Source: Xestospongia bergquistia (lineage: Eukaryota > Porifera > Demospongiae > Haplosclerida > Petrosiidae). Taken from it: DNA of 64,000 bases. The translations under genes and the position numbers were made by a program. Position 1 is the first letter of the stretch. Each line of letters begins with the position of its first letter. A model generated the notes under the pieces. That model saw nothing but the letters and a program-made list of their open reading frames with translations, did no database searches and was not told the origin of the DNA. Below, one piece after another: positions 10,176 through 64,000 of this stretch. Location: NCBI GenBank assembly GCA_963965975.1, contig OZ014419.1:1054001-1118000 (forward strand), read 5' to 3'.

Positions 10176-10194
10176 ATACAACATGACATGATAA

Positions 10195-24332: not shown

Positions 24333-25814
<1,482 letters not shown>

Positions 25815-30490: not shown

Positions 30491-31118
30491 ACAGTTAAAA
30501 TTATAATATTTGCTTTCTTGGGAATAAATATTAATATACCATTAACCATTATTACCGCCCACTTTTAGCCACACCTGCTACATATTATTATATTACATTA
30601 TTCCTACTATTTACATGTACATGTTAAGAGGATCCCCCTTTAATTAGGCCAATTAACTAAAAGATGCTCTTTCTCTTTTTTGACTTCAGACAAACTTTGA
30701 TGTAAAAGTTATCTACTATAACAATAACAATAACAACATAGTCAATGACATTCTTTATTAATTAATCTTAAGCTTAATCTTACTTTTCTCTTTGATTTGT
30801 TTCATCTTGATGTTTTAATGCCTATATAGAAATAACACTATTACAAACAATTTAGAATACAATTTAGGATATTCATCAACAATGTCACTTAAATAATATT
30901 AGTGGCATATTTTTGCATTGTGCTATTAACTATAATCTCTAATTAATTTATAATCTCTAATTAACGATCTAATGTTTTTCATTGAGTGAAGTTGGTATTT
31001 TCAAAACAATTATAGAATGATTTTTGATTTTAATTTTTTTGCTGTGTATGTAAAGCTATGTAAACTGTAGGGCTGGGTCGAGAATAACATACGCCTCTCT
31101 ACTCTCATCTCTGTGATT
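30491..31118. other. Intergenic spacer, P450 to CARD-synthetase gene
   Basis: Contains an AATAAA at 30523-30528 for the P450 gene and then AT-rich sequence. The proximal promoter of the CARD gene must lie here. No exon or repeat was seen. Confidence 0.5.
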
Positions 31119-34100
31119 ATGTCTTCACAGGACTGGAAAAATGCCATAAGGCACAACTATGTTGACCTAACCGAATATTTGAATGTAGATGAAGTCTTAC
31201 CTCGATTGTACCAGCAAGATGTTTTGACACAAAATGAGTACGAGGAATTTAAAGTTATAACAGAAACCAGGGTCAAAAGAGCAGACAGGCTATTACAGAA
31301 GCTACTGAGTAAAACATTTACATCTTATGAGAAATTTATTCGAGTTCTTCAAGACACTACAGCAGGTACTGCACATAATGAATTGATCTTGGCTCTTCAG
31401 AACTATGGATGTGCACCAACTCAACCATTTTACCAGTCTCCCACACCAAATTATTCCAGTCCAGTTCTGGTGTCTGAGGCACATAAACAGGCAGCAATCA
31501 GTGAGGTTTCTCAAGATAAAACTACCTCAATATCTGGTGCTATTTACGAAATGCCTTTACAAGAGTCAACAGCAATCAATGAAAACATGAGAGGAGAAGA
31601 CGTTGAGAAAGATGGATCTAAATCCAGTAAGTCTGACAGTACAAAACCTAAATAAATAAAAAATAAACATGTAATTACATTAAATAACACATCGAAGTTA
31701 TCCCCCTGAATAAATTATTTTTGTTATATAGTTATGTTTAATTATGTAGCTATACACTTATTATAATTATTGTCTGTAAGCTATTAATTTTATTATATTA
31801 ATTAGCTACTCCAAGTTTATCCAGAGTGCAGTCGAAAGAAAAAGGAGTTTCTAACTTGGAGTTGTTGGAATTTGAACATCGCAATGTGATAGCTTTACTC
31901 TGCAAAAGGAATGATTGTCAGAATTTTGAGATGTTTTCACAAAGCATATTAAAAGATTTAAATTATGGTGAACAAGCTAAGGATATACTATGTCAAGCCT
32001 TTCTCAATTTTTTTGATTCTGATAATATTTACGAAGCTATTAAGATCATCTCCAAGTGCTTATACTTCCACTACATTAATTCTGATATTCTTCAAGTGTT
32101 AGCTCGTGCTACAGGAGATAGTACCTCTATTGAAGAAGCACAAGCTTATGAAAAACTTTTGAGTCAAATTTGTCAAAAAGTTCATGTAGAAGAATTCCTC
32201 AAGTTTAATCAGCCACCTGAAGCTGCTGAAGATATAACCAGTACAGTGCTTATCAAGAAAAATGAACGATGGCAGCTTTGCTATCTTAACACTGTGAAGG
32301 CTACTATTGATGCTGTCTGTAAACTTGGAGGAATTCCGCCTTTTTTATGTCGTTTAAAGTCTATCAGACGAGGGTGTGTAGCTATGGAATTACTGATACC
32401 AAGACTTCTTGCTCAAAAAATGTTCCAACATCTTCAGAGTCAATGGAAAGTGTTGCATGATTCTCACTCCATTGACCAACTGATCATTGACGATGATATT
32501 GTTGTAAATCTGTTTGATGAAAAGGTATTTAAAAGAGGATTTATCTTGTTATCAGATATTGTTGTAATGCCTACTAGATACACAGAATTCTCAAGAAAGG
32601 ACAGAATCCAGATCAACCACTACTAGAAACATCACAAGAAGTTCTACAACAATTTCGTACTTATTACAAGGATGCTTATGAGGCAAGTTTACACAGTCCG
32701 AAAAAGTTCTGGCATTTTTTAGGAGAAAAATGTTTGAAATGGATCCGTGATCCTACTCCCAATAAAATACCTGGTGATGATGATATAATTCAAGACAATA
32801 TACATATTGAGTGGTTTAAAGATGGTTTGTTGAATGTCACAGGTAAAAGAACTAATAATTGCTGTTTTTGATTTATTACTACTTTTCTCAACAGAAAACT
32901 GTCTTGATCGTCATATTAAAACAAATGGTGATAAGATTGCTATCATCTACAAAACTGATGACTTTGAAACTCAAAAACTGACGTAAGAATGTAACCAATA
33001 GTTTCATTTAAAATTATTATACTATTTTCTTCTTAAGATACAATGATCTACTGAGACTTACCTGTGAAATTGCTAATGTTTTGAAACGACATAGTGTCCA
33101 GAAAGGAACAAGAGTCATTATACATTTACCTACTCATCCAATGGCTATTGCTTGTATGTTAGCTTGTGCTAGAATTGGTGCAATACACTGGTAAGTATAG
33201 TTTTATCTTTAGCTGTTTATATTTTGTGTTTTCTTCTATTAGCAATGTACCATCTACATCTAGTGCTACTTTACTTGCCCCAAGGATAAGAGATGGTGAA
33301 CTATTTATTATCTAGTGTGTTTTATAAGTCATATTATCTCTTTCAGCTGGTGCTGCAGTTATCATTACTAGTAGCATTACTTTGCAACACAAAACAAAGG
33401 AGATCAAACTGTTTGATAATGTGATTGAAGCTATAGCCATGTTTGGATGCAATGAAGTTAAAAAAGTCTTTGTAACCAAATTAGATCAATCCGCTATTAA
33501 AAATACTTTTTCACCAGAGATTCCAGACTGCGTAAAAGTTTATTTATTGGAGACTGTAAGTTCTTCAAACTATCCACCTACAGTTTATCAATATACAGGA
33601 TATACTTAAAGAACGACATTATTGTCAACCTGAGCCCATGTCAGGAGAGGATGAACTCTTTATTGCATATACATCTGGTAGTACTGGTACACCAAAGGGT
33701 CTAGTTCACACACAAGCAGGATATCTTCTTTATGCTACAGTTTCTTATCAAGTCAGTCTTTGGAAATTTAATACTATCTAATATTCTTAAATATATAAGG
33801 TTGCATTTGATTATGAAGAGGGTGATATATCAGCATTTCTTGCTGACATGGGTTGGATAGTTTCTCATACTTACATGACTTATGGAGTTCTATCATCAGG
33901 TGGTACTACTCTACTATATAATGGAAAATTAGAAGACCATGATCTAAGTATGTACAATTTAGTAATTATTTAGATAATGTACTTGATTTTTTTCTTTCAG
34001 ATTCACTACTGTCAATTGTTGAAGAACAAAAAATTACTCAGTTAATTATGTCACCATTGTTGTTAGGTAAATTAAAATCTAAACATGAGATTGAGAGTTC

Positions 34101-37100
34101 ACAGCCACTACCTGAAAAACCTTCCTGTCTCAAGTTACTAGGCTCAGGTAATTTGCAATAGAACTGTTACTATAATAATTTGTGCTTAGTTGGTGAACAT
34201 TTGCCTTCTACAACAAAAATGTGGTATAAAGAGAATCTACAATTGACAATATTTGATCATTACTGGCAGACAGGTATTTATTTTATTGTTTAAAATAAAA
34301 ATAAAAGAGTTTGTTACTGATAGAAACTGGTGGTATTTTATTTTCTCCTAAATTAACAAAAGACAATGGAACACTGACAGTTTCAGATGGAATGTATCCT
34401 TTTTTTGGAGTTCAGCCACTTTTGTTTGATGAAAAAGGAGGAGTATGTACTATATCAAACTAATTTGTTACTTAATTATATTGTATTGTATGTAGATGAA
34501 AGAGGTACATGGAGACAATGTTGAAGGGAACCTATATTTAACTAAACCCTTACCTGGGATGGCAAGGACTATATATGGTGATCATGACAGATACAAGAAC
34601 ACTTACTGGAATGAAGTCTATGGTATAGTTAACTTTTAAATCTCTTAACTTTACCTTTTACCTAGATGGTAATCCCTGTTTTTATACTGGTGATAGTGCA
34701 TTAAGAGATGAGTTTTCATTATATCATATTAATGGAAGAGTTGATGATGTTATTACTGTTGGACAATATCGATTTGATCCAGCCAGACTTGAAGATGTCT
34801 TGGTATGTAGAGAATTCCTTTTTGTTATTAATTTTATTTTATTTGGTTAATTTTAATATCAGAATGAGGACAAAAATATAGTCAAATCAGCATGTATTGG
34901 TTTCAGAGATGATGTTAGCTCAGGTAAGTGCTATCCTATTATAGTTTGCACTGTTGTTATTCTATTGGTGCTTATTAATGTTATTTGTTTATTTCTTTGT
35001 TTTTAATGTTTTGTACTTAGGAATTATGAGTTTTGTAGTTTTGAAAAGTCAAGCACTGTCATGGACAAGAATGGAGAAAAAACTTATTGATAGATTAACA
35101 AGAAACTATCCAGATATTGATAAAATGCCTTGCAAATTTCAAGTTAGTTAAAATACAAAGAAACACAGCACTATAATAATATACTGTTTCATATTTTGTG
35201 TTGTAGTTTGTGAAAGATTTTCCAACTACAAAAAGTTCAAAAACAAGTCGACATTATCTCAGAGAGATAACTAAGAAGTATGGTTTCCATAAAGAAACAG
35301 ATTATGACTCTTTAGATGACCCACGTGTACCTAAAGACATCAGTATTCAACTCAATGTTATCAGAGGTTTATAAAATCACTTTTAACGCATTTCCAATAT
35401 ATTATTATTAGGTGAAGGATTGGCTCATGAATCAGACAATTATAGTGACACATACAAAGCAACAGTTGAGCTTTCTGATTTGTTTTGGAGTGGACTAGCA
35501 GACAACATACTAAAACATGAGGAGGTGAATGTCTGTGATATGAACAGTGGACATATTGAATGGTTTAAGGGAGGATTCCTTAATGTTGCTGGTAAATAAT
35601 ATCTAATGGAATAATATGTAAATTCCTCTCTTTGTAGAGCAGTGCCTTGATAAGTACATTGATTATGACAATATTGCTCTGATAAGTGAAGCAGAAGAAA
35701 TTACTTACAAGTAAGATATTAATTAATAGTATATCTAACCTATTTAATAAATTGTTGATCATTTTAGAAAATTATTGGAAAGAACATGCAAGATTTCCAA
35801 TGTTCTTGTTAATAATGGAATAAAGTCTTACTCTAAAGATCAAGAGTTCCCTGATATTATTGTTATAGTTATGTCATTAGAAGTTACTTCAGTAGCTTGT
35901 GTTCTAGCATGTGGAAGACTTGGCTTGATCCACTGGTGAGATGATTATATCTTAATTAGTTTGTTTTATTTTATTAACTATTAGTACAATATCTCCAATG
36001 ACCAACACATCAACACTTACTCGATATCTTAATGATGGTGAGATTTATATTGTATGCAGTAAGATAATAAATGGATTATTAAATTCTGTAATCTCTTTAG
36101 TCAAACCAATTGCCATTATCACTAATTATAATTTGCTGGAAAATGTAAAGAAAGCTATGACCAAGACTGGACAAAGTATAAAATTATTTGTTACTGGTAT
36201 ACCACAGACTACTGAAGATATAGTGGACTTTATCAATATGGACAAGGTTAGGTTTTAAATAACAATGACCTACAAATCTTTGTATCTTAGGAACTTGATC
36301 AGTGCCTTAATACTGATTTTCCACCAGTCAAAGTTCCAAGTAGACATCCACTGTTTGTCATTTTAGCTGCAGGGGACTCTGATGAACCTAAGCGAGTCAT
36401 TCACTCACATGCAGGATTCCTCCTCTACTCTGCAACAACTTACAAGGTCTACTTTACAACTCTTAAACTATTTACATCAAATGATTACTTTTTATAGTAT
36501 GTGTTTGATTGTGGAGTTGGTGATCGATCAGTTGTTACTACAGACTTGGGTCATCCATTGACACTAGCCTACACAATTTATGGTCCACTTTACAATGGAT
36601 GCACATCAGTTCTACTAAATGGACAGTTACTGTCAAATGACCCAGGTATTTAATATTAATTAACTAATTCACATTTGACCACATGTTTTATTATTAGCTA
36701 AATATTGGAAGCTCTTAGATTCATTTAGAGTAACTCAATTTATCATGACATCAAATATGGTTACCAAAATGAAGCATAAATGTAGTACTTGCCAGATTAG
36801 TAGGATCAATTCACTAAGACTCATTGCCACAGGTGAGATAGTGATCATTTATTGGGTACATGCATATTTAATTTTTAATAGCTGGAGATTACTTACATGA
36901 AGACAATTGGGAATGGCTTTATAACAATATAGGGAAGAACTCTTGTACTCTTGTTGATTGTTATTTTTCATCAGGTTAATTTTACTAATACTTTGTAAAT
37001 ATTTTAATAATTATATTACAGTTGGTGGTGCTGTTATAAGTTCTCGGCCATGTCAAAAGAATGTGGCCTTTTCTAAAGATTGTCAAAGACCTGGTGTTCC

Positions 37101-37949
37101 TATGCAACCATTCTATGGAGTTGATGTACAATTGTTTTATATCAATGTATGTTTGTTATTAATTATTATTAAGTAAACTGATATTTCTTTGTAGACTAAA
37201 ACTAAAATTGAAGAAAATGAACATATTGGCTACTTATGTGTAAAACCATTTCCAGGACTGGCTATTGGGTTGCTAGGTGATCAACCTGAAAACGGACAAA
37301 CAGAGTTTTATAGGATGTATTGTAGTCTTATTCCAGGTATTCAATAATGTTACTATGGCAACTGAGTTAAATGAAATGAGACTTTCTTCTCCTTTTCAGG
37401 ATATTTCTACACTGGTGATGTTGCTAGAAGGACAGCTAATGGTGACTATAGAATTCTTGGTTTTTTCACTGACCTTCTTTATATTGATGGAAAGTATATA
37501 GCACCAATGGAGATAGAGGAAACCATTGTATGTCTGTCGGCATTTTTTGTAATTTTAATAATTATTTATATTTTTAGACAAAACACAATTCTATTGTTGA
37601 GGCAGCTGTAATACAAGATGAGACCAAGACAGGTTATATATACTGATCAAAGATATAATATTATAATTTATAATGTACTTATGCTTTAGAAATCCATGGA
37701 TTTATTGTACTTGAAGATGACAAAGTGTTGGACTCTATTTTGTTTAGTGAAATCAATGCAAGGATTACAGAAAGTCATGGAGAAAAAGCTCAACTCACAA
37801 AGCGACCAGTAAGACAGTCATTATTTTAATATCAGGTGTATTTCATAACAATGATGTTTTTAAAATAGAATGTACTTGCAAAATTACCCAAAGCTGGCAG
37901 AGGAGATAAAGTTGACAGGACAAAGCTAAAGAACATTTTGCAGGATTGA
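31119..37949 (+). CDS. CARD plus tandem acetyl-CoA-synthetase-like fusion (gene A)
   Basis: Close to 30 short exons; the first eight are 31119-31626, 31806-32524, 32578-32842, 32895-32982, 33038-33190, 33243-33295, 33347-33555 and 33599-33751. The product is about 1,600 residues. Residues 1-95 form a CARD ([31 protein letters not shown]). A Ser/Thr linker follows, then an unassigned, mainly helical region to about 410. Next is an AMP-forming acetyl-CoA-synthetase domain: [11 protein letters not shown]-loop [11 protein letters not shown] (about 689-699), HYWQTETGG, YTGD, GRVDDVI and the C-terminal catalytic-lysine segment [16 protein letters not shown] second synthetase-like copy ends in [10 protein letters not shown], but its P-loop position reads [10 protein letters not shown]. 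The first domain should adenylate a short acid; the second is probably a dead, regulatory copy. The CARD implies recruitment into a death-fold signalling assembly. The joint function is inference. Confidence 0.85.
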
Positions 37950-39232
37950 GTTTATCTTCTAATGCAAATGATATAATTATAGATATTAATATACATAGTT
38001 AAAGAGAGTTATAAACATTGTAGGTTACTATAACGATTTAAAGTTGACAATTTCTGGGTGGGGCTCAAACACTGCTCCACCCACACATCATGCAGTTCAC
38101 CATCTGATGCAAATACCATTCTCTGATTTTCAGCCCTCTTTTGCTATTAATTCACGTATTGACAACTTAATAATAGCCAGTACTAGAGGAAGATGTGCTT
38201 TTGTCTTTGAATACAAAGATGGCACATACACAAATGTAAGTTGCTGTATTGTTATGTTCACAATAGTTTATTGTTCTCTTTTGTTAGTTGGGATCAATTA
38301 AATTAACTATATCAACAACTTCTGACCAATATCCTTGGGTATTAATATCTTTAGTGCTGGACTCTTACCCTCGTCTGGTGATCCTATTTTGACAACCACC
38401 AGTCACATGTCTTCAACACTTAGTTTATTGTCAGATAAACCACACCTCCCTAGAGAGAAGACTGAAAGAACAACAACACAAGCATATACTGCTAAGAGTA
38501 CCTCCCCTCCAACCAAACCTATCCTCACTGCCAGATATGGATACTAAGGTATCAAAGGGTACCAAACTATTAGTCACTGTTCGTATGGGACAATGGGAGA
38601 TATCCACATATGTAAAACCTGCCCTCCCTCATCAAGTTAATATTGGTGATAGTATTATTGTAAAAAGAAGCAATGGGACCTATGATGCTGGTGTTATCAG
38701 ATGTGTGGGTGTGCAATGGAAAGGAGACAAAATGTGTGGAGTTGAGTTGGAAGTATCAAGTAAGTCTGTCCTCCATTTGTGGAAAATACCAATAACATTT
38801 TGAATAGTATAATAAGAAGGAACCATTGCTATTAAAATTAACTATTTAGCAAGCAGTATAGCAAATTTAGGGTTAAAAATGAATCTGCAATGTCAAACCA
38901 AACAATATAATTTCAATAAGCATTGATTGCTTATTGAAATTAGATTTGTTACTATGTCATAGATCCATTACCACACTTATAGATCCATTGATATATTTAT
39001 AGATCCATTACCATGTTTCATTCACATACAATATATCCATTGCAACATTTATGCATCTTTTGATATTTTAAACATGCATCCATTGTTATTAATTGACCAT
39101 TTATTCCATTTTATATTTCAATATACCTTCTTTTTTCAGGGCAAGACGGACAAGAAAAAAACAATGATGGAACATTTAAAGATGGAAAGAAATATTTTGA
39201 ATGGTAAGATGAGGACTAGCAAGTTAACCTAT

Positions 39233-41345: not shown

Positions 41346-41608
41346 AGTTTTCTCTACTTTTGCACACATTCCATTTGGTTTTGGAGCCAGAATGTGTGTT
41401 GGTATGTCACAATGATGACAACTGTTGTGATTGTAATAACTATATTATAGGTCGTAGAATAGATGAACTTGAATTATACATTAGTTTAGTAAATGTTATG
41501 AGGAATTTTAGATTATCTTTCCCTGAACAGTCACCAATGAAGGCTCATTTTGGAGGAGTAGGTATAGAAGTGGAAAGATCATTGAATCTTTTATTTAAAG
41601 ATCTATGA
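41346..41608 (+). pseudogene. P450 3'-end copy 1
   Basis: Matches the end of P450 exon 7 (CTACTTTTGCACACATTCC, PFGFGARMCVG) and all of exon 8, with the 46-base intron lengthened by a few bases. The last exon is open to the original stop codon. Nothing of the first six exons is present, so no P450 can be made. It forms the left edge of tandem unit 2. Confidence 0.9.
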
Positions 41609-41756: not shown

Positions 41757-44700
41757 ATGGATCATAGTGGTGAGGACTTAGTATTATTGTCTGTTTTCAT
41801 ACTTACTATCTTTATATACTCTCCATTGTTAACATGAAATGTAGTATGTCTATGAATTCAGTTAAAGGTGCTGTGAGTGAGTCTTAATAATATACTGAGG
41901 AGCCTAAACCCATGTAATTATAGTCAGACCCTCCTACAGGAGGGAGTGTCTGGCTATGTAAGACCTGTATTTTATGGGAATGTTCTTATAGCTTTAATTT
42001 TGCCATGGTTTGTATATATATATGTGTGTGATCTATCATCAATGTTTGATAGATATGCAAGTATTTTAGAAGTGAAAGATGTTAGTATATTTTGTTGTTG
42101 TGGGAGAAGGAGTAGGAATAAAGTATTTTGTTATATGGTCCTACTAATTCACTGTTTGTTTTCTGTACAGAACAAGACACTACAGGAGGTACTTCTTTAC
42201 CAACTCCAGTGTGTGAAACACAACCAATCAAGGAAGTATCTCAAGACAGAACTACATCAATGTCTAGTGCTATTTATGATAGCCCTATACAAGTGTCTAT
42301 ATCTGGTTAGTTATTAAAATATTAGTAGTTTATGCAATGGAACAAATAACAGTTTATATATATAGTATATCCTCCATTGCACTTTATTTGTAAACCTTCA
42401 TTGTATATTTATAGCTAATTAATGTTGATGAACTGTTGATAGTAATGTTGATTTTTGTATTTATTAGGTCATAATGTTATTCCAATCTTACAGTCTAAGG
42501 AAAAGAAATCTCCTCTAAGTTTTCTAGAATTTGAACATCGTAATGTAATAGGTTCACTGTCCAAAACAAACAGTACTAGTAGTTTAAAATTTCAAAAGTT
42601 TTTACAAGAAATTTTGAAAAATTTGAATTGTGAACAAGATGAAGCTAAGTGTGTACTAAGTCAAGCCTTTCATAATATTTTAATCTCTGATAATATATCT
42701 GAAGCTATTCAAGTTATCTCTGAAAGTTTATTCTGTCACTACATGAATTCTGATATTCTTCAAGTGTTAGCTCATGCTACAGGAAAAGATACCTGTATTG
42801 AAGAAGCACAAGCTTATAAAACACGTCTGAATCAAATTTGCCAAGAAATACATGTAGAAGAATTTCTCAAATTTAATGAGACACCTCAAGCCACTGAAGA
42901 TACCAGTATTGTCTATGTCAAGAAGAATGAACAATGGCAGCATTGTAGTCTTAGTACAGTGATGGATACTGTTAAGACTGTCTGCAAACTTGGAGGAGTA
43001 CCACCATTTTTGTGTCGTATAAAGTCTATCAAACGAAGTTCTGTTGCTGTGGAATTTCTTATACCAAAATGTCTAGTTCAAGATACAATACAACATCTTT
43101 CAAGTCAAAAGGAATCATTACATATTGATCACTCAATTGATCAACTGTTCATTGATAATGTCAACATTGTAAATCAATTTTATGATAAGGTACAATGGTC
43201 TATTTTATTATCATGTAATGGTTTATTGTATAATAGGTTCAAAAACTTCTTGAGAAAGGACAGCGCCCAGATCAGCCACTACCTAGAACATCACAGGAAG
43301 TTCTACAACATTTTCATACTTATTATGATGATGCTTATGACACAAGTATATACAGCCCTAAAGAGTTTTGGCATTTTTTAGGGAAAACTTGTCTGAAATG
43401 GATTCGTGGTCCTACTGCCTGTGAATTGACTCAAGATGATCATAAAATTATTCAAGATGGCATGTGTATTGAATGGTTTAAAGACTGTTGGTTAAATGTC
43501 ACTGGTAAATTATAATAATTGTTAACATGTTTATGATTTATTACTACTTTTCTCAATAGAAAACTGTCTTGATCGTCATATTAAAACAAATGGTGATAAG
43601 ATTGCTATTATCTATAAAACTGACAACTTTGAAACTCAAAAACTGACGTAAGAATGTCACAGGTAGTTTATATTAAAATTATTGTACTATTATCTTCTTA
43701 AGATACAATGATCTACTGAAACGTGTCTGTCAAATTGCTAATGTTTTGAAACGACATAGTGTCCAGAAAGGAACAAGAGTCATTATACATTTACCTACTC
43801 ACCCAATGGCTATTGCTTGTATGTTAGCTTGTGCTAGAATTGGTGCAATACACTGGTAAGTATAGTTTTATCTTTAGCTATTTATATTGTGTGTTTTCTT
43901 CTATTAGCAATGTACCATCTACATCTAGTGCTACTTTACTTGCTCCAAGGATAAGAGATGGTGAGTTATTTATTATATGGTGTATTTTATAAGTCAATAT
44001 TGTCTCTTTCAGCTGGTGCTGCAGTTATCATTACTAGTAGCATTATTTTGCAGCACAAAACAAAGGAGATCAAAATGTTTGATAATGTGATTGAAGCTAT
44101 ATCAATGAGTGAAGTTAAAAAAGTCTTTGTAGCACAATTAGGTCAATCTAATATGAGACGTCTTTCTCAAAATTATCCAGATAATATAGATGTCCATTTG
44201 TTAGATATTGTAAGCTATTCAACACTTTCTGTCTCTCCATATTCATTATCTATTACATCAATAACAGGCCATACTTGATGAATGTTCTGATTGTCAACCT
44301 CAGCCCATGTCAGGAGAGGATGAGCTCTTTATTACATATACATCTGGCAGTACTGGTACACCAAAGGGTCTAGTTCACACACAAGCTGGGTATCTTCTTT
44401 ATGCTACAGTTTCTTACCAGGTTGATCTTTGAAAATCTAATATTCTTCTATATATATATATATTTTGAAGATTGCGTTTGATTATGAAGAGGGAGATATA
44501 TCAGCATTTCTTGCTGACATAAGTTGGATAGTATCTCATAGTTATATGACTTATGGAGTTCTATCATCAGGTGGTACTACTCTACTATATAATGGGAAAT
44601 TAGAAGATCATGATCTAAGTATGTACAGTTAGTAATTATTTAGATAATGTACTTCATTTTTTTCTTTCAGATTCACTACTGTCGATTGTGGAAGAACAAA

Positions 44701-47700
44701 AAATTACTCAGTTAATAATGTCACCATTGCTGTTAGGTAAATTAAAATCTAAACAAGAGATTGAGAGCTCATGGCCTTTGCCTAAAAAACCTTCCTGCCT
44801 CAAAATACTTGGCTCAGGTAATTCACAGTAGTAATTCACTGTTACATACAACACACTAACTTATGCTTTAGCTGGTGAGTGTTTGCCTTCAACTACAAAG
44901 AAGTGGTATAAAGAGAATCTAGGTGTGACAATATTTGATAACTATGGACAGACAGGTATTTGCTTTTTGGTTACTAATTTTATCTTCTGATATTAATTTT
45001 AGAAACTGGAGGCTTATTGTTTTCTTCCAAATTAACAAAAGACAATGGAACACTGACAGTTTCAGATGGAATGTATCCTTTCTTTGGAGTTCAGCCACTT
45101 TTGTTTGATGAAAAAGGAGGAGTATGTACTATATCAAACTAATTTGTTACTTTATTGTATTGTATGTAGATGAAAGAGGTACATGGAGACAATGTTGAAG
45201 GGAACCTATACTTGGCTAAACCCTTACCTGGGATAGCAAGGACAATACATGGTGATCATGACAAATACAAGAACACTTACTGGAATGAAGTCTATGGTAT
45301 GGTTAACTTTAAATCTCTTAGCTTTATCTTTTACCTAGATGGTAATCCTTGTTTTTATACTGGTGATAGTGTATTTAGAGATGAGTTTTCATCATATCAT
45401 ATCAGAGGAAGAGTTGATGATGTTATTACCATTGGAGAATATCGTTATGATCCAGCGACACTTGAAGATGTCTTGGTATGTTAATCAAAGTTAATCTAGA
45501 ATGAACAGAATAGATTGTTATGTACTTTTGTATAATAGAAAAGAAATGAACATGTTGTAAAATCAGCTTGTATTGGTTTCAGAGAGAATGACAGTTCAGG
45601 TCAGTGATGTCTATCATTTGAGTTTATAATTCAGTGATTGTCTGGACTCATTTAATATATAATATAATCAAACAAGATTGTTCAGTTTGAAATGTTTTGT
45701 ATTTAGGAATTATGAGCTTTGTAGTTTTAAACAATCAAGAACTGTTATGGAAGGAAGTGAAAAAAGCTCTTCATGACTTATTGACTGAACAATTTCCCAA
45801 TATCAATAAATTTCCCTGCAAATTTCAAGTCAGAAATATTTGATAATAGAACAGTTTCATATTTTGTTTTGTAGTTTGTGAAAGATCTTCCCACTACAAA
45901 AAATTTAAAAACAAGTCGACATTATCTTAGAGAGATAACCAGAAAGGGTGATTTCCATAAAGAAACAGATTATGAATTTTTAGATGACCCACATGTACCT
46001 AAAGACATCAGTATTCAACTCAATGTTATCAAAGGTTTATAAAATCACTTTTAATACACTTCTAAATTCAAATATATTATTATTATTATTAGGTGAAGGA
46101 TTAGCTCATGAATCAGACAATTATAGTGACACATATAAAGCAACTGTTGAGTTTTCTGATTTGTTTTGGAGTGGACTAGCAGACAACATACTGAAACACA
46201 AGGAGGTGAATGTCTGTGATATGAACAGTGGTCATATTGAATGGTTTAAGGGAGGATTCCTCAATGTCACTGGTAAATGATATCTAATGGAATAGTATGG
46301 AAGTTCCTTCCTTTATAGAGCAGTGTCTTGATAAGTACATTGATTATGACAATATTGCTCTGATAAGTGAAGTAGAAGAAATTACTTACAAGTAAGATAT
46401 TAATAATTAATAGTATATCTAATCTATTTAATAAATTGTTGATCATTTTAGAAAATTATTGGAAAGAACATGCAAGATTTCCAATGTTCTTGTTAATAAT
46501 GGAATAAAGTCTTACTCTAAAGAGCAAGAGTTCCCTGATATTATTGTTATAGTTATGTCATTAGAAGTTACTTCAGTAGCTTGTGTTCTAGCATGTGGAA
46601 GACTTGGCTTGATCCACTGGTGAGAATTTATATCTTAATTAGTTTGTTTTATTTTATTAACTATCAGTACAATATCTCCAATGACCAACTCGTTGACACT
46701 TACTCAATACCTAAATGATGGTGAGTATTTTTTATTGCATGTAGTAAGATAATTAATAGATTCTTTCTGTAATCTCTTTAGTCAAACCAATTGCCATTAT
46801 CACTAATTATAATTTGCTGAAAAATGTAAAGAAAGCTATGACCAAAACTGGACAAAGTATAAAATTATTTCTTACTGGTATACCACAGACTACTGAAGAT
46901 ATAGTGGACTTTATCAATATGGACAAGGTTAGATTTTAAATAACAATGACCTACTAATCTTTGTATCTTAGGAACTTGATCAGTACCTTAATACTGATTT
47001 TCCAGCAGTCAAAGTTTCAAGTAGACATCCACTGTTTGTCATTTTAGCTGCAGGGGACTCTGATAAACCTAAGCAAGTCATTCACTCACATGCAGGATTC
47101 CTCCTCTATTCTTCAACAACTTACAAGGTCTGCTTTACAACTCTTAAACTGTTTACATCAAATGATTACTTTATAGTATGTCTTTGATTGTGGTGTTGGT
47201 GATCGATCAATTGTTACTACAGACTTGGGTCATCCATTGACACTAGCTTACACAATTTATGGCCCACTTTACAATGGAGGTACATCAGTTCTAATAAATG
47301 GACAGTTACTGTCAAATGACCCAGGTATTTTAATATTGGTTAACTAATTCACATTTGACCACATGTTTTATTATTAGCTAAATATTGGAAGCTCTTAGAT
47401 TCATTTAGAGTAACTCAATTTATCACGACATCAAATATGGTTACCCAAATGAAGCGTAAATGTAGTACTTGCCAGATTAGTAAGATCAATTCATTAAGAC
47501 TCATTGCCACAGGTGAGATAATGATCATTTATTGGGTACATGTATACTTAATTTTTAATAGCTGGAGATTACTTACAAGAAGACAATTGGGAATGGCTTT
47601 ATAGCAATGTAGGGAAGAAGTCTTGTACTCTTGTTGATTGCTATTTTTCATCAGGTTAATTTTACTAATACTTTGTAAATATTTTAATAATTATTTTACA

Positions 47701-48625
47701 GTTGGTGGTGCTGTTATAAGTTCTCGACCATGTCAAAAGAACATTGCCTTTTCTAAAGATTATCAAAGACCTGGTGTTCCTATGCAACCATTCTATGGAG
47801 TTGATGTACAGTTGTTTGATATCAATGTATGTTTGTTATTAATTGTTATTAAGTAAACTGATATTTCTTTGTAGACTAAAACTAAAATTGAAGAAAATGA
47901 ACAGATTGGCTTCTTATGTGTAAAACCATTCCCAGGACTGGCTATTGGGTTGCTAGGTGATCAACCTGAAAATGGACAAACAGAGTTTTATAGGATGTAT
48001 TGTAGTCTTGTTCCAGGTATTCAATAATGTTACTATGGCAACTAGGATAAATGAAATGAGACTTCTTCTCCTTTTCAGAATATTTCTACACTGGTGATGT
48101 TGCTAGAAGGACAGCTAATGGTGACTATAGAATTCTTGGTTTTTTCACTGACCTTCTTTATATTGATGGAAAGTATATAGCACCAATGGAGATAGAGGAA
48201 TCCATTGTATGTCTGTCAGCATTTGTTGTAAATTTTAATAATTATTTATATTGTTAGACAAAACATAATTCTATTGTTGAAGCAGCTGTAATACAAGATG
48301 AGACCAAGACAGGTTATATTGATCAAAAAGATAATATTATAATTTACAGTGTACTTATGCTTTAGAAATCCATGGATTTATTGTACTTGAAGAGAACAAA
48401 GTGATGGACCCTATTTTGTTCAATGAAATCAATGCAAGAATTACAGAAAGTCATGGAGAGAAAGCTCGACTCACAAAGCGACCAGTAAGACAATCATTAT
48501 TTTAATATCAGGTGTATTTCATAACAATGATGTTTTTAAAATAGAATGTACTTGAAAAATTACCCAAATCTGGTAGAGGAGATAAAGTAGACAGGACATG
48601 GCTTAAGAACTTTTTGTGGTATTAA
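41757..48625 (+). CDS. Tandem acetyl-CoA-synthetase-like protein without CARD (gene B)
   Basis: Exon 1 is only 41757-41769 (MDHS plus one base). It joins in phase 1 to exon 2 at 42171-42305 ([10 protein letters not shown]…), then exon 3 from 42468. The CARD of gene A is absent. The rest follows gene A exon by exon: linker, helical region, first synthetase domain with P-loop [11 protein letters not shown] and catalytic-lysine segment [15 protein letters not shown], and a second, degenerate domain ([10 protein letters not shown]). Two points stand out. The conserved acetate-pocket Trp before QTETGG is Gly (codon 44946-44948). The last codons (WLKNFLWY then stop) differ from genes A and C because foreign sequence begins at the stop. 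All exons examined are open. The middle part (about 45540-45830) differs strongly from genes A and C. Confidence 0.8.
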
Positions 48626-50894: not shown

Positions 50895-53800
50895 ATGGAT
50901 CATAGAGGTGAGGACTTAGCATCATTGTCTATTTTCATACTTAACATTTGTATCTTATAAGTAGTGTGTTGACTGTGATTTCAGTCATAGGTATTTTGTA
51001 GGATTTCTGAAACGTAGTGGCTATACGTACGGCACTGGCCGGCAGCCAATACGAACCAGCAGTTAGGTATATGGACGCTGTTTGTATCAAAATAACATTA
51101 TTGTGATATTTATTAATAGCTAGTTAAAACATTTAAGAAATGGAACGTCACATATATTATATATAAGTTTAACAAAATGTATAATAACCTGTTTATATGT
51201 TTATTGAATGTAACTCTAGCTATTTATGTAATATCTATCATAAAAGGTGTTGTTTTGATACAAATAGCACCCCATGGGTAGGTTCTATAATATTTCCAGG
51301 TATAATATTATTTCCTCATTAAAGTGTATACTTCTAAGCTTGTGTGTGCTGTGGGAATAGTCACTGCCTTTCTGAAATGCTTGTATATCAATCAAACATT
51401 GTATATACATATACAACACTAGTCATTAGCAAAATATTTTGCTAGTCCTACTAATTTTATGGTTTGTTTCCTGTACAGAGTTCAGAAAACAAGACACTAC
51501 AGGAAGTACTTCTTTACCAAGCCCAGTGTCTGAAACACAACCAATCAAGGAAGTATCTCAAGATAGAACTACATCAATGTCTAGTGCTATTTATGATAGC
51601 CCTATACAGGAGTCTATGTCTGGTTAGTTATTAAAATATTAGTAGTTTATACAATGGAACAGGTTAACAGGTCATGTATATATAGTATGTCCCTTACCTT
51701 GCAACAGTTTCTCCATTTCACCTTGCATGTATAACCTTCCTTATGTATTATAATGTTGATGAGCTGCTGAGGATAATATTGATTTTTGTATTTGTTAGGT
51801 CAAAATGTTAGTTCAAACTCACAGCCTAAGGAAAAGAAATCTCCTCTGAGTTCTCTAGAATTTAAACATCGCAATGTTTTAGGCTCACTGTCTGAAAAGA
51901 CCAGCAGTGTGAATTTTCAGGAGTTTTTGCAAGAAATTTTGAGATACTTGAATTGTGAACAAGATGAAGCTAAGTGTGTGCTAAGTCAAGCCTTTCATAA
52001 TATTTTGAACTCTGATAATATATCTGAAGCTGTTCAAGCTATCTCTAAAAGTTTATTCTGCCACTACATGAATTCTGATATTCTTCATGTGTTAGCTCGT
52101 GTTACAAAAAATGATACCTGTATTAAAGAAGCACAAGATTATGAAACACGTCTGAACCAAATTTACCAAGAAATACGTGTAGAAGAATTTCTCAATTTTA
52201 ATGAAGCACCTCAAGCCACTGAAGATACCAGTATTGTGTATGTCAAGAAAAATGAACGATGGCAGAGTTGCTATCTTAGTGCAGTGATTGATACCGTTAA
52301 GACTGTCTGCAAGCTTGGAAGAATACCACCATTTCTATGTCGTATAAAGTCTATCAAACGAGGTTCTGTTGCTGTGGAATTTCTTATACCAAAATGTCTA
52401 GTTCAAGATATGATACAGAATCTTTCAAGTCAAAAGGAATCATTACATGTTGATCACTCAATTGATCAACTGTTCATTGATAATGTCAACATTGTAAATC
52501 AATTTTATGAAATGGTACAATGGTCTATTTTATTTTCATTTAATGGTTTATTGTATAATAGGTTCAAAAACTTCTTGAGAAAGGACAAAGTCCAGATCAG
52601 CCACTACCTAGAACATCACAGGAAGTTCTACAACATTTTCGTACTTATTATAATCATGCTTATGACACAAGCATATACAGCCCTAAAGAGTTTTGGCATT
52701 TTTTAGGGAAAACTTGTCTGAAATGGATTCGTGGTCCTACTGCCTGTGAATTGACTCAAGATGATCATAAAATTATTCAAGATGACATGCATATTGAATG
52801 GTTTAAAGACTGTTGGTTAAATGTCACTGGTAAATTATAATAATTGTTAACATGTTTATGATTTATTACTACTTTTCTCAACAGAAAACTGTCTTGATCG
52901 TCATATTAAAACTAATGGTGATAAGATTGCTATCATCTATAAAACTGACTTTGAAACTCAAAAAATAACGTAAGAATGTCACCAGTAGTTTCAATTAAAT
53001 TATACTGTTATCTTCTTAAGATACAATGATCTACTGAAACGTGTCTGTCAGATTGCTAATGTTTTGAAACGACATAGTGTCCAGAAAGGAACAAGAGTCA
53101 TTATATATTTACCTACTCACCCAATGGCTATTGCTTGTATGCTAGCTTGTGCTAGAATTGGTGCAATACACTGGTAAGTATAGTTTTATCTTTAGCTGTT
53201 TATATTGTGTGTTTTCTTCTATTAGCAATGTACCATCTACATCTAGTGCTACTTTACTTGCCCCAAGGATAAGAGATGGTGAGTTATTTATTATATGGTG
53301 TGTTTTATAAGTCCATATTGTCTCTTTCAGCTAGTGCTGCAGTTATCATTACTAGTAACATCACTTTGCAACACAAAACAAAGGAGATCAAACTGTTTGA
53401 TAATGTGCTTGAAGCCATATCCATGAGTGAATGCAATGAAGTCAAAAAAGTCTTTGTAACACAACTAGGTCAATCTAATATGAAATGCCAACCTCAAACA
53501 AATTATCCAGATAATATAGAAGCCCATTGGTTAGATACTGTAAGCTATTCAACACTCTCTGTCTCTCCATATTCATTACCTATTACATCAATAACAGGCC
53601 ATACTTAATGAGTGTTCTGACTGTCAACCTCAGCCCATGTCAGGAGAGGACGAACTCTTTATTTCATATACATCTGGCAGTACTGGTACACCAAAGGGTC
53701 TAGTTCACACACAAGCTGGGTATTTTCTTTATGCTACAGTTTCTTATCAAGTCAGTCTATGAAAATTTAATATTATAAACTATTATTAAATATATAAGAT

Positions 53801-56800
53801 TGCATTTGATTATAAAGAGGGAGATATATCAGCATTTCTTGTTGACATGGGCTGGATAGTATCTCATACTTACATGACTTATGGAGTTCTATCATCTGGT
53901 GGTACTACTCTACTATATAATGGCAAATTAGAAGACCATGATCTAAGTATGTACAATTTTGTAATGTTTTAAATAATGTACTTCATTATTTTCTTTAAGA
54001 TTTCTTACTGTCATCAATTGTGAAAGAACACAATGTTACTCAATTAATGATGTCACCATTGCTGTTAGGTAAATTAAAATCTAAACAAGAGATTGAGAGC
54101 TCACAGCCTTTACCTAAAAAACCTTCCTGTCTCAAATTACTTGGCTCAGGTAATTTGTAGGAGAACTGTTACTATATTAACTTGTGCTTTTAGCTGGTGA
54201 GCGTTTGCCTTCTACAACAAAATTATGGTATAAAGAGAATCTACAATTGACAATATTTGATCATTACTGGCAGACAGGTATTTATTTTATTGTTTAAAAT
54301 AAAAATATAGAGTTTGTTACTGATAGAAACTGGTGGTATTTTATTATCTCCTAAATTAATAAAAGACAATGGGACACTGACAGTTTCAGATGGAATGTAT
54401 CCTTTCTTTGGAGTTCAGCCACTTCTGTTTGACCAAAAAAGAGGAGTATGTACTATAACCAACCAATTTGTTATTTAATTGTATTGTATTGTATGTAGAT
54501 GAAAGAGGTGCATGGAGACAATGTTGAAGGGAACCTATATTTGGCTAAACCCTTACCTGGGATGGCAAGAACAATACATGGTGATCACAACAAATACAAG
54601 AACACTTACTGGAATGAAGTCTATGGTATGGTTAACTATTAAATCTCTTAACTTTATCTTTTACTTAGATGGTAATCCTTGTTTTTATACTGGTGATAGT
54701 GCATTCAGAGATGAAGTTTCATCATATCATATTAATGGGAGAATTGATGATGTTATTACTGTTGGACAATATTGTTATGATCCAGCGACACTTGAAGATA
54801 TCTTGGTATGTAGAGAATACGTTTTGTTATTAATTTGTTATTTGGTTAATTTTCATAACAGAATGAGGATGAAAATGTAGTCAAATCAGCATGTATTGGT
54901 TTCAGAGATGATGTTAGCTCAGGTAAGTGCTATCCTATTATAGTTTGCACTGTTGTTATTCTATTGGTGCTTAATGTTATTTGTTTATTTCTTTGTTTTT
55001 AATGTTTTGTACTTAGGAATTATGAGTTTTGTAGTTTTGAACAGTCAAGCACTGTTGTGGACAGAAATGGAGAAAAAACTTATTGATAGATTAACAAGAA
55101 ACTATCCAGATATTGATAAAATGCCTTGCAAATTTCAAGTTAGTTAAAATACAAAGAAACACAGCACTATAATAATATACTGTTTCATATTTTGTGTTGT
55201 AGTTTGTGAAAGATTTTCCAACTACTAAAAGTTCAAAAACAAGTCGACATTATCTCAGAGAGATAACTAAGAAGGGCGGTTTCCATAAAGAAACAGATTA
55301 TGACTCTTTAGATGACCCACGTGTACCTAAAGACATCAGTATTCAATTCAATGTTATCAGAGGTTTATAAAATCACTTTTAATACATTTCTTAATTTAAA
55401 TATATTATTATTAGGTGAAGGATTGGCTCATGAATCAGACAATTATAGTGACACATATAAAGCAACTGTTGAGTTTTCTGATTTGTTTTGGAGTGGACTA
55501 GCAGACAACATACTAAAACATGAGGAGGTGAATGTCTGTGATATGAACAGTGGTCATATTGAATGGTTTAAGGGAGGATTCCTCAATGTCACTGGTAAAT
55601 AATATCTAATGGAATAGTATGGAAGTTCCTCTCTTTATAGAGCAGTGCCTTGATAAGCACATTGATTATGACAATATTGCTCTGATAAGTGAAGCAGAAG
55701 AAATTACTTACAAGTAAGATATTAATAATTAATAGTATATCTAACCTATTTAATAAATTGTTGATCATTTTAGAAAATTATTGGAAAGAACATGCAAGAT
55801 TTCCAATGTTCTTGTGAATAATGGAATAAAGTCTTACTCTAAAGAGCAAGAGTTCCCTGATATTATTGCTATAGTTATGTCTTTAGAAGTTACTTCAGTA
55901 GCTTGTGTTCTAGCATGTGGAAGACTTGGCTTGATCCACTGGTGAGATGATTATATCTTAATTAGTTTGTTTTATTTTATTAACTATCAGCACAATATCT
56001 CCAATGACCAACACATCAACACTTACTCAATACCTTAATGATGGTGAGTATTTTATTGCATGTAGTAAGATAATATTCTGTAATCTCTTTAGTCAAACCA
56101 ATTGCCATTATCACTAATTATAATTTACTGGAAAATGTGAAGAAAGCTATGACCAAAACTGAACAAAGTATAAAATTATTTGTTACTGGTATACCACAGA
56201 CTACTGAAGATATAGTGGACTTTATTAATATGGACAAGGTTAGGTTTTAAATAATGATAACCTACTAATCTTTGTATCTTAGGAACTTGATCAGTGCCTT
56301 AATACTGATTTTCTAGCAGTCAACGTTCCAAGTAGACATCCACTGTTTGTCATTTTAGCTGCAGGAGACTCTGATAAACCTAAGCGAGTCATTCACTCAC
56401 ATGCAGGATTCCTCCTCTATTCTTCAACAACTTACAAGGTCTGCTTTACAACTCTTAAACTGTTTACATCAAATGATTACTTTATAGTATGTGTTTGATT
56501 GTGGTGTTGGTGATCAATCAGTTGTTACTACAGACTTGGGTCATCCATTGACACTAGCCTACACAATTTATGGTCCACTTTACAATGGAGGTACATCTGT
56601 TCTAATAAATGGACAGTTACTGTCAGATGACCCAGGTATTTAATATTAATTAACTAATTCACATTTGAAGACGTTTTATTTTTAGCTAAATATTGGAAGC
56701 TCTTAGATTCATTTAGAGTAACTCAATTTATCACGACATCAAATATGGTTACCCAAATGAAGCATAAATGTAGTACTTGCCAGATTAGTAGGATCAATTC

Positions 56801-57924
56801 ATTAAGACTTATTGCCACAGGTGAGATAATGATCATTTATTGGGTACATGCATACTTAATTTTTAATAGCTGGAGATTATTTACAAGAAGACAATTGGGA
56901 ATGGCTTTATAACAATGTAGGGAAGAAGTCTTGTACTCTTGTTGATTGCTATTTTTCATCAGGTTAATTTTACTAATACTTTGTAAATATTTTAATAATT
57001 ATTTTACAGTTGGTGGTGCTGTTATAAGTTCTCGACCATGTCAAAAGAATGTAGCCTTTTCTAAAGATTGTCAAAGACCTGGTGTTCCTATGCAACCATT
57101 CTATGGAGTTGATGTACAGTTGTTTGATATCAATGTATGTTTGTTATTAATTGTTATTAAGTAAACTGATATTTCTTTGTAGACTAAAACTAAAATTGAA
57201 GGAAATGAACATATTGGCTACTTATGTGTAAAACCATTCCCAGGACTGGCTATTGGGTTGCTAGGTGATCAACCTGAAAATGGACAAACAGAGTTTTATA
57301 GGATGTATTGTAGTCTTATTCCAGGTATTCAATAATGTTACTGAGTTAAATGAAATGAGACTTTCTTCTCCTTTTCAGGATATTTCTACACTGGTGATGT
57401 TGCTAGAAGGACAGCTAATGGTGACTATAGAATTCTTGGTTTTTTCACTGACCTTCTTTATATTGATGGAAAGTATATAGCACCAATGGAGATAGAGGAA
57501 ACCATTGTATGTTTGTCAGCATTTGTTGTAATTTTATTAATTATTTATATTTTTAGACAAAACACAATTCTATTGTTGAGGCAGCTGTAATACAAGATGA
57601 GACCAAGACAGGTTATACTGATCAAAGATATAATATTATAATTTACAATGTACTTATGTTTTAGAAATCCATGGATTTATTGTACTTGAAGATGACAAAG
57701 TGTTGGACTCTATTTTGTTTAGTGAAATCAATGCAAGAATTACAGAAAGTCATGGAGAAAAAGCTCGACTCACAAAGCGACCAGTAAGACAGTCATTATT
57801 TTAATATCAGGTGTATTTCATAACAATAATGTTTTTAAAATAGAATGTACTTGAAAAATTACCCAAAGCTGGCAGAGGAGATAAAGTTGACAGGACAAAG
57901 CTAAAGAACATTTTGCAGGATTGA
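50895..57924 (+). CDS. Tandem acetyl-CoA-synthetase-like protein without CARD (gene C)
   Basis: Exon 1 is 50895-50907 (MDHR plus one base). A 571-base intron leads to exon 2 at 51479-51622 and exon 3 from 51799. The layout otherwise matches gene B. The first synthetase domain keeps [20 protein letters not shown] with the pocket Trp, and the lysine segment [15 protein letters not shown]. The second domain reads [10 protein letters not shown] at the P-loop position and lacks WQTETGG, so it is probably inactive. Its N-terminal third is closest to gene B, but from about 54190 onward it is closest to gene A, including introns. This points to gene conversion or unequal crossing-over. All exons examined are open, ending LKNILQD. 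Confidence 0.82.
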
Positions 57925-63140: not shown

Positions 63141-64000
63141 ATGGATCATAGTGGTGAGGACTTGTCTGTTTTCATAGTTAATATCTGTATATACTCTCCA
63201 TTGTTTGTACAGTATCTCTATGAATTCAGTTATAGGCGAGTCTTAATAATATATGATTGATTGATTGAAGAGCCTAAACCCCAGTAATTATAGTCAGATC
63301 CTCTTGCAGAAGGGAGTGTCTGGCTATGCAAGAACTGTATTTTATGGGAATGTTGTAGCTTTAATTTTGCCCATGGTTTGTATTTATATATATATATATA
63401 CATATATATATATGATCCATCATCAATATTTGATGGATATACAAGCATTTAAGAAATGAAAGATGTTAGGATATTTTGTTGTTGTCGTGGGAGAAAGAGT
63501 AGGAATAATAAAACATTTTGTTATATTCCCCTACTAATTCATTGTTTGTTTTTTGTACAGAGCAAGACACTACAGGAGGTACTTCTTTACCAACTTCAGT
63601 GTCTGAGACACAACCAATAAAGGAAGTATCTCAAGACAGAACAGCATCAATGTCTAGTGCTATTTATGATAGCCCTATACAGGAGTCTTTATCTGGTTAG
63701 TTATTAAATATTAGTAGTTTATACAATGGAACAAATAACAGTTCAAGTATACAGTATATCCTCCATTGCACTATATGTGTAAACCATTATTGTATATCGA
63801 TTATATTATAATGTTGATAAACTGCTAATAGTAATATTGATTATTATGTTTATTAGGTCACAATGTTACTCCAAGCTTGAAGCCTAAGGAAAAGAAATCT
63901 CCTCTGAGTTCTCTAGAATTTGAACATCGTAATGTAATAGGTTCACTGTCCAAAACAAACAGTACTGGTAGTTTAAAATTTCTGAAGTTTTTACAAGAAA
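63141..64000 (+). CDS. Tandem synthetase-like gene, 5' part only (gene D, runs off the window)
   Basis: Exon 1 is 63141-63153 (MDHS plus one base), exon 2 is 63561-63695 ([12 protein letters not shown]…) and exon 3 starts at 63857 and continues past the end. The sequence matches gene B closely ([19 protein letters not shown]). There is no CARD. The synthetase domains lie outside the window, so intactness cannot be judged. It shows that the array has at least four members. Confidence 0.8.

What the first reader, a model, noticed from the sequence alone, without database searches (positions are those of the whole stretch)
31119..37949. A CARD fused to two acetyl-CoA-synthetase-like domains: undescribed architecture
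Seen: one gene model with consistent splice phases reads from a CARD-like N terminus through a linker and helical region into a full AMP-forming synthetase domain, then a second one. Known: CARDs assemble apoptosis and immune signalling complexes; acetyl-CoA synthetases make acyl-AMP and acyl-CoA. Inference: the CARD would bring an adenylating enzyme into a death-fold assembly, so that acyl-CoA, acyl-AMP or protein acylation becomes part of an innate immune or cell-death signal. I know of no described family that joins these domains.
Basis: partly seen in the sequence, partly recalled or inferred. Interest (0 to 1): 0.92.

Follow-up and report, generated by a model that had tools for sequence, protein, structure and literature searches.

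The report
CARD joined to acetyl-CoA synthetase pair
One animal gene appears to encode a cell-death/immune assembly domain (a CARD) joined to an acetyl-CoA-making enzyme and a probably dead copy of that enzyme, which would put a metabolic enzyme inside an immune signalling complex.

Summary
A 32-exon model (31119-37949 +, 1,684 aa, all 31 introns GT-AG, phases consistent) joins a real CARD (PF00619, E=4.7e-12, over its cut-off) to two acetyl-CoA-synthetase-type domains. The window holds two further copies complete for exons 2-32 (B, C) and the 5' part of a fourth (D). B and C keep all 30 introns between exons 2 and 32. The CARD exon's linker and its phase-1 splice to exon 2 recur in B, C and D, supporting the join without RNA. 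Corrections: (1) exon 2 ends in a predicted beta-alpha-beta-beta-alpha-beta domain with a GC/GS turn, probably TRADD-N as in published Amphimedon "Death-like + TRADD-N + variable C-terminus" proteins; sequence profiles do not prove it. (2) Only the first synthetase looks catalytic; the second has lost its ATP loop and other motifs in A, B and C, yet is under purifying selection. (3) B, C and D appear to have lost the CARD. Against: the intron after the CARD exon holds the window's densest plus-strand poly(A)-signal cluster, so a CARD-only transcript is possible. New effector, known architecture class; immune role inferred.

The parts
31119..31626 (+). Exon 1 of copy A: CARD (residues 1-~95) plus linker (~100-170); donor GTAAGT, phase 1
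   Evidence: PF00619 E=4.7e-12; open frame; donor and phase; linker conserved in B, C, D
31627..31805 (+). Intron 1 of copy A (179 nt, longest of 31); in-frame stop at 31653 if unspliced; five poly(A)-signal hexamers at 31651-31709
31806..32524 (+). Exon 2: helical region (residues ~171-310) then a predicted beta-alpha-beta-beta-alpha-beta, TRADD-N-like domain (~314-400) with a Gly-Cys turn
   Evidence: AlphaFold2 secondary structure, block-mean pLDDT 59-83 in the C-terminal part and under 50 in the N-terminal part; Foldseek; paralogue alignment
32578..35366 (+). Exons 3-17: synthetase domain 1 (ACAS_N, AMP-binding, AMP-binding_C), core motifs kept
35412..37949 (+). Exons 18-32: synthetase domain 2, degenerate motifs; stop codon at 37947-37949
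41757..41769 (+). Copy B: candidate 13-nt first coding exon (ATGGATCATAGTG, then donor GTGAGG), conserved in C and D
42171..42305 (+). Copy B: linker exon, begins with the CARD-tail remnant QDTTGGT
42468..48625 (+). Copy B: exons 2-32, intact open frame, all 30 introns between them kept
50895..50907 (+). Copy C: candidate first coding exon
51479..51622 (+). Copy C: linker exon with CARD-tail remnant
51799..57924 (+). Copy C: exons 2-32, intact open frame, all 30 introns between them kept
63141..63153 (+). Copy D: candidate first coding exon
63561..63695 (+). Copy D: linker exon with CARD-tail remnant
63857..64000 (+). Copy D: start of exon 2, runs off the window

Best explanation
Copy A encodes one 1,684-residue protein: CARD - linker - helical region - TRADD-N-like domain - acetyl-CoA-synthetase-type enzyme - degenerate second synthetase. 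Most likely mechanism: the CARD joins or nucleates a death-fold assembly, the TRADD-N-like domain sits as a switch between the adaptor and the effector part, and assembly concentrates or releases synthetase 1, which makes acyl-AMP and acyl-CoA (probably from a short-chain acid) at that site; synthetase 2 acts as a non-catalytic regulatory or structural partner. Shown by computation: gene model, domain identity, internal duplication, motif retention and loss, purifying selection on exons 2-32. Inferred: transcription of the joined form, TRADD-N identity, enzyme activity, substrate, assembly, and any immune or cell-death output.
For: Domain hits over curated cut-offs. Exon model with 31 GT-AG introns, its 30 downstream introns kept in B and C. 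Linker and phase-1 splice to exon 2 conserved in four copies. The first full codons of the linker exon in B and D match the CARD tail of A at 21 of 24 nt (C: 20 of 24, from its fourth full codon) in the same reading frame; of random 508-nt targets not overlapping the four copies (2,957 for B, 2,948 for C, 2,958 for D) none scored above 16. dN/dS 0.25-0.52 in 18 comparisons, six partly overlapping regions of exons 2-32 in three pairs; linker A-B: 6 changes over 14.7 synonymous sites against 8 over 51.3 non-synonymous sites. Synthetase 1 of A keeps [24 protein letters not shown] and the A10 lysine; synthetase 2 has [17 protein letters not shown] and GFFTDL in place of the first three. Published precedent for Death-like + TRADD-N + variable C-terminus in Amphimedon, with the 'switch' model (PMC8195603).
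Against: Poly(A)-signal cluster in intron 1: 5 hexamers; 4 of 1,276 200-nt windows hold 4 or more, and all 4 lie on this cluster; the matching introns of B, C and D hold 1 each. B, C and D carry no CARD that tblastn finds (besides A only one hit, opposite strand, E=0.72), so the synthetase can evolve without it. TRADD-N is not supported by sequence: no NCOA6 or TRADD-like family among Pfam matches at E<=10 (HMMER's filters drop most matches above 0.1), hhalign probability 0.5% against 32 bacterial TRADD-like_N segments, and no TRADD-N structure named among the 50 of 1,096 Foldseek rows shown. Selection on the CARD itself could not be tested. No RNA or protein data.
Confidence: 0.5

Rival explanations
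1. The CARD exon is mainly a separate short product (178 aa, stop at 31653) made by polyadenylation in intron 1, with the synthetase read from another start or only from a minority of transcripts. As an alternative isoform it could act as a CARD-only decoy.
For: Five AATAAA/ATTAAA hexamers at 31651-31709 in intron 1; 4 of 1,276 200-nt windows hold four or more, and all four lie on this cluster; homologous introns of B, C, D hold one each; the introns between exons 2 and 32 of A, B and C average 0.45 per 179 nt (12 in 4,793 nt).
Against: The linker is read in the CARD frame and looks constrained relative to B, C and D (22 codons only); the donor is a perfect GTAAGT in the phase exon 2 needs; linker-to-exon 2 splice sites are conserved in B, C and D. 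Three of the five hexamers fall in one AT-rich run.
Confidence: 0.24
2. An ordinary metabolic acetyl-CoA-synthetase relative, internally duplicated, with a dispensable N-terminal adaptor: the CARD of copy A is a remnant or lineage accident with no signalling role.
For: Both enzyme domains match AcsA best in NCBIfam; B and C, with intact frames, and D, as far as visible, show no CARD; the CARD itself has no paralogue here by which selection could be tested.
Against: A CARD-tail remnant in B, C and D suggests that the CARD was joined before the copies split, and the CARD frame of A is intact with a good family score. Neither domain reaches the AcsA equivalog cut-off: 485 and 304.6 against 724.95 bits. 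The adaptor-like exon 2 is kept in A, B and C under dN/dS 0.41-0.48.
Confidence: 0.21
3. Artefact: two neighbouring genes joined by mis-assembly or by an over-eager hand-made model.
Against: The same exon structure in B and C, the linker in B, C and D, and the 14 shared intron phases between the two synthetase domains.
Confidence: 0.04

Closest known systems
NCOA6-clade TRADD-N proteins of Amphimedon (Kaur et al. 2021, PMC8195603)
   Same: N-terminal Death-like domain(s), then a TRADD-N domain, then a variable C-terminal effector or sensor; lineage-specific expansion; conserved small-residue + Ser/Cys turn
   Different: The Amphimedon C-terminal domains named in the text are ankyrin, SH3-LRR, kinase, MATH, SH2, PDZ, caspase, PNPase and HD; no acyl-CoA synthetase is named. 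Its figures and source data could not be read here.
[quoted passage not shown]
   Same: Three-part ACAS_N / AMP-binding / AMP-binding_C; synthetase 1 keeps the core motifs; 34.6-38.5% identity to the ten bacterial hits listed
   Different: Two domains in one chain, the second degenerate; below the AcsA equivalog cut-off; CARD and TRADD-N-like N-terminus
CARD-bearing adaptors and caspases (RAIDD, RIP2, CARD11, CED-3)
   Same: PF00619 match; all-helical model; 26 of the 50 Foldseek rows shown (of 53 at E<=10) name a CARD in the title, though none has E below 0.79
   Different: The CARD is attached to a metabolic-type adenylating enzyme, not to a caspase, kinase or NTPase
DIP2 proteins (recalled, no call)
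   Same: Two adenylation-type domains in tandem in one animal protein
   Different: FAAL-like domains with a DMAP1-binding N-terminus, no CARD

Membership tests
CARD (PF00619) | Score over the curated Pfam cut-off | tested here: met
   46.2 against 23.9 bits; the sister family CARD_2 is below its own cut-off, 21.7 against 28.2
CARD (PF00619) | Six-helix death fold | tested here: inconclusive
   Single-sequence AlphaFold2 model, pLDDT 70.5, all helical, seven helices counting the short H17-20; 26 of 50 Foldseek rows shown name a CARD, best TMq 0.69 to the MDA5 CARDs chain, but no E-value better than 0.79
AcsA acetyl-CoA synthetase, domain 1 | Core catalytic motifs (A3 P-loop, A5, A7, A8, A10 lysine; motif names recalled) | tested here: met
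   for copy A; 82 of 125 columns invariant (>=98%) in 51 bacterial enzymes are kept
AcsA acetyl-CoA synthetase, domain 1 | NCBIfam equivalog cut-off (TIGR02188) | tested here: not met
   485 against 724.95 bits: a relative, not filed as AcsA
AcsA acetyl-CoA synthetase, domain 1 | Acetate specificity | not testable with these tools
   Pocket tryptophan kept in A and C, glycine in B; neighbouring pocket residues changed in all three
AcsA acetyl-CoA synthetase, domain 2 | Core catalytic motifs | tested here: not met
   A3 [12 protein letters not shown]5 YFSS-VG, A8 GFFTDL in copy A, alike in B and C; A7 YTGD kept; 55-56 of 125 invariant columns kept
TRADD-N superfamily | RRM-like beta-alpha-beta-beta-alpha-beta sandwich | tested here: met
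   Secondary-structure order in a model from three sequences only, block-mean pLDDT 59-83 in that part; Foldseek lists ferredoxin-like, ACT-type and other alpha+beta structures at weak E (best 0.0074, a mycobacterial adenylyl cyclase)
TRADD-N superfamily | Small residue + Ser (or Cys) at the beta2-beta3 turn | tested here: met
   GC in A, SS in B, GS in C; criterion from PMC8195603
TRADD-N superfamily | Significant profile match | tested here: inconclusive
   No such Pfam family at E<=10; hhalign probability 0.5%, E 0.12 against 32 bacterial TRADD-like_N segments; the query profile is very shallow, Neff 1.4
Sponge Death-like + TRADD-N + variable C-terminus class | Death-like domain N-terminal, TRADD-N between it and a variable C-terminal domain | tested here: inconclusive
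   CARD position met; the rest hangs on the TRADD-N call; organism not verified
Sponge Death-like + TRADD-N + variable C-terminus class | Function in immunity or cell death | not testable with these tools
   none

The most novel reading that the evidence does not exclude
A metabolic effector arm of animal innate immunity: CARD assembly in copy A switches on an acyl-adenylating enzyme held in check by a TRADD-N-like hinge and a pseudo-synthetase partner. Acyl-CoA or acyl-AMP made inside the death-fold complex would be the signal or the substrate for local protein acylation. Tandem paralogues without the CARD, one with a possibly widened acyl pocket (Trp to Gly in B) and one with a lost active-site arginine (C), would serve as CARD-free partners, decoys or variants.
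Probability: 0.3. Interest if true: 0.87.

Novelty: new variant of a known kind. Interest (0 to 1): 0.6.

Why it matters
Death-fold proteins are known to recruit proteases, kinases, NTPases and nucleases. A death-fold adaptor covalently tied to an acetyl-CoA-type synthetase would make central metabolism a direct output of such a complex. It also gives a clean natural comparison: tandem copies with and without the CARD, and an active-looking and a dead-looking synthetase in the same chain.

Tried and rejected
Searches that led nowhere: no relative of exon 2 or of the CARD exon confirmed in IMG/VR contigs; no relative of synthetase 1 confirmed in GTDB contigs with patterns drawn from the whole domain; no PADLOC hit at E<=0.1 for exon 1, exon 2 or synthetase 1; phmmer of exon 1 against PDB gives only weak hits (best RAIDD CARD, E=0.27); the TRADD-N profile test is not significant; the A2 profile finds no TRADD-N in PDB (2 matches, best E=0.6, viral capsid triplex proteins).

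Considered and rejected: CARD as a chance ORF; second synthetase as a separate neighbouring gene (frame and splice sites run through, and intron phases show internal duplication); a hidden CARD exon upstream of B, C or D (tblastn of the whole window finds only A apart from one hit of E=0.72 on the other strand; a conserved mini-exon takes its place); CARD gained by A alone (the CARD-tail remnant in B, C and D argues for loss in them). MAFFT aligned that remnant elsewhere, so the homology rests on the ungapped tests.

Full report
What was checked. The finding claims one gene model with a CARD, a helical region and two acetyl-CoA-synthetase domains at 31119-37949. I rebuilt the model exon by exon: 32 exons, 31 introns of 42-179 nt, all GT..AG, phases consistent, 1,684 residues and a stop. 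Pfam gives CARD at residues 8-81 (E=4.7e-12, 46.2 bits, cut-off 23.9), then ACAS_N + AMP-binding (1.4e-59) + AMP-binding_C, then the same three again (AMP-binding 3.6e-33).

Is the CARD really joined to the enzyme? The window holds more copies of this gene: B (42468-48625) and C (51799-57924), each complete for exons 2-32, and D, which runs off the end after the start of exon 2. B and C keep all 30 introns between exons 2 and 32 with GT-AG, exon-length differences are multiples of three (exon 2 after a hand correction of its start), and there is no internal stop. Upstream of exon 2, B, C and D have a linker exon homologous to the C-terminal part of A's CARD exon, with splice sites that join it to exon 2 in the same phase 1 as in A. 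That linker exon begins with a remnant of the CARD tail: a 24-nt stretch at or near its start matches A at 31350 at 21 of 24 (B, D) and 20 of 24 (C), in the same reading frame. Against random 508-nt targets from either strand that do not overlap the copies (2,957, 2,948 and 2,958 for B, C and D), nothing scored above 16. The linker looks constrained as protein: A-B 6 changes over 14.7 synonymous sites against 8 over 51.3 non-synonymous sites, but over 22 codons only. So CARD-to-linker continuity and linker-to-exon 2 splicing are both supported by comparison, without RNA.

What speaks against the join. Intron 1 of A holds five AATAAA/ATTAAA hexamers (31651-31709) at and just past the in-frame stop at 31653. 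Four of 1,276 200-nt windows in the sequence hold four or more, and all four lie on this cluster; the homologous introns in B, C and D hold one each; the introns between exons 2 and 32 of A, B and C average 0.45 per 179 nt. Three of the five are in one AT-rich run, but a CARD-only transcript, as the main product or as an isoform, is a live possibility.

CARD loss in the paralogues. tblastn of the CARD finds copy A and, besides, only one opposite-strand hit of E=0.72. In B, C and D the place of the CARD is taken by a candidate 13-nt coding exon, ATGGATCATAGTG, followed by donor GTGAGG (41757, 50895, 63141; one mismatch in C), whose phase fits the linker exon; these are the only such sites in the window within four mismatches on the plus strand. 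With the CARD-tail remnant this argues that the ancestor had the CARD and the B-D lineage lost it. The role of the mini-exon is inferred from position and phase only.

The enzyme domains. Both match AcsA best in NCBIfam but below its equivalog cut-off (485 and 304.6 against 724.95 bits). Best PDB relatives are acetyl-CoA synthetases. Of 125 columns invariant (98% or more) in 51 bacterial enzymes (51 of 80 loci fetched passed the length and no-stop filter), synthetase 1 keeps 82 (A), 77 (B), 79 (C); synthetase 2 keeps 55 (A), 56 (B), 56 (C). Synthetase 1 has [17 protein letters not shown] (GRIDDV in C) and the A10 lysine in all three copies. The acid-pocket tryptophan (Trp414 in the Salmonella enzyme; numbering recalled) is kept in A and C and is glycine in B (codon 44946-44948); the arginine equivalent to Arg526 (recalled) is cysteine in C (codon 54773-54775). 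Other pocket positions differ from the bacterial enzymes in all three copies (ADMGWIVSH in A against ADVGWVTGH). Synthetase 2 of A has [11 protein letters not shown] for the ATP loop, YFSS-VG for WQTETG and GFFTDL for GRVDDV, nearly the same in B and C, while keeping YTGD and a lysine near the A10 position. It is therefore probably a pseudoenzyme, but a constrained one: dN/dS 0.25-0.39. All 14 introns inside synthetase 1 have a counterpart of the same phase in synthetase 2, 13 of them within three alignment columns and one 11 columns away: the second domain arose by duplication of an intron-bearing domain.

Exon 2. No Pfam match for copy A at E<=10. The C-terminal half is predicted as beta-alpha-beta-beta-alpha-beta (block-mean pLDDT 59-83, from three sequences; whole-model mean 51.2), with Gly-Cys (A), Ser-Ser (B), Gly-Ser (C) at the beta2-beta3 turn. 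PMC8195603 (sections 8 and 10-13 read in full; passages elsewhere) characterises the TRADD-N superfamily by an RRM-like fold and a small-residue + Ser (sometimes Cys) motif at that turn. It reports 357 such proteins in Amphimedon, the majority of architectures with 1-3 N-terminal Death-like domains, then TRADD-N, then a variable C-terminus. Copy A fits that plan. The sequence test does not confirm it: hhalign against 32 bacterial TRADD-like_N segments (from a Nostoc genome and genomes of its family) gave probability 0.5%, although the ten aligned columns fall on the Gly-Cys/Gly-Ser motif; Foldseek has 1,096 matches at E<=10, none at 0.001 or better, and the 50 shown include ferredoxin-like, ACT-type and other alpha+beta structures with no TRADD-N named. 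The N-terminal helical half is low confidence; whether it is a second Death-like domain is open.

The CARD model. A single-sequence AlphaFold2 model (pLDDT 70.5) is all helical; Foldseek has no hit better than E=0.79, but 26 of the 50 rows shown name a CARD in the title, best TMq 0.69 to an MDA5 tandem-CARD chain.

Divergence pattern. A against B or C: dS 0.64-0.67 in exon 2, 0.22-0.29 in synthetase 1, 0.07-0.10 in synthetase 2. The 3' half looks homogenised, for instance by gene conversion (inferred), while the adaptor end diverges. dN/dS is 0.25-0.52 over the 18 comparisons of that call.

How it most likely works. The CARD recruits or assembles; the TRADD-N-like domain couples adaptor to effector, the switch model proposed in PMC8195603; synthetase 1 makes acyl-AMP/acyl-CoA at the assembly; synthetase 2 regulates or scaffolds. 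Only the anatomy is shown; the chain of events is inference.

Known or new. The paper's text names ankyrin, SH3-LRR, kinase, MATH, SH2, PDZ, caspase, PNPase and HD as Amphimedon C-terminal parts; 'acyl-CoA', 'CoA synthetase', 'AMP-binding' and 'acetyl' do not occur in its main text, and the passages shown with 'synthetase' or 'ligase' concern cGAS, oligoadenylate synthetase and ubiquitin-type ligases. Its figures and source data could not be read. Ten literature searches gave no title or abstract start that describes a CARD or TRADD-N protein with an acyl-CoA synthetase; searches returned no paper, and the lists (12 of 295; 12 of 14; 6 of 2,053) were capped. Apart from PMC8195603 I opened no listed paper. 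I rate it a new variant of a known kind, with a metabolic enzyme as the unusual effector.

Noticed in passing
window 6882-23475: Four long ORFs without a stop (1,050-1,081 aa), two on each strand, each with a Ferritin-like domain (PF12902), plus a related fragment by eye at 19509-19985: a local expansion of an apparently intronless gene.
   Followed up: partly
window 41519-41664, 50189-50322, 62903-63060: DNA matching the stretch around the 3' end of the P450 gene (30401 to 30531-30562) lies upstream of copies B, C and D: the duplicated unit seems to have carried a piece of the neighbouring P450.
   Followed up: partly
window 38393-38803 and 58364-58765: A further gene-like ORF follows copy A and again copy C; no Pfam match at 0.01. 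By eye it resembles a CAP-Gly type segment (recalled, untested).
   Followed up: no
window 31806-37949 against B and C: Strong gradient of synonymous divergence, from about 0.65 in exon 2 to under 0.1 in synthetase 2, suggesting gene conversion of the 3' half.
   Followed up: partly
window 44946-44948 (copy B) and 54773-54775 (copy C): Copies differ at predicted acid-pocket and active-site residues of synthetase 1: Trp to Gly in B, Arg to Cys in C, as if substrate range or activity had diverged.
   Followed up: partly
window 25766-27709: ORFs with a Ras-like and a BTB domain in succession upstream of the P450 gene, RhoBTB-like if one gene.
   Followed up: no
window 40005-40407 and 62041-62220: Tandem repeats with units of 58 and 61 bp that look alike, in the spacers upstream of copies B and D.
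   Followed up: no
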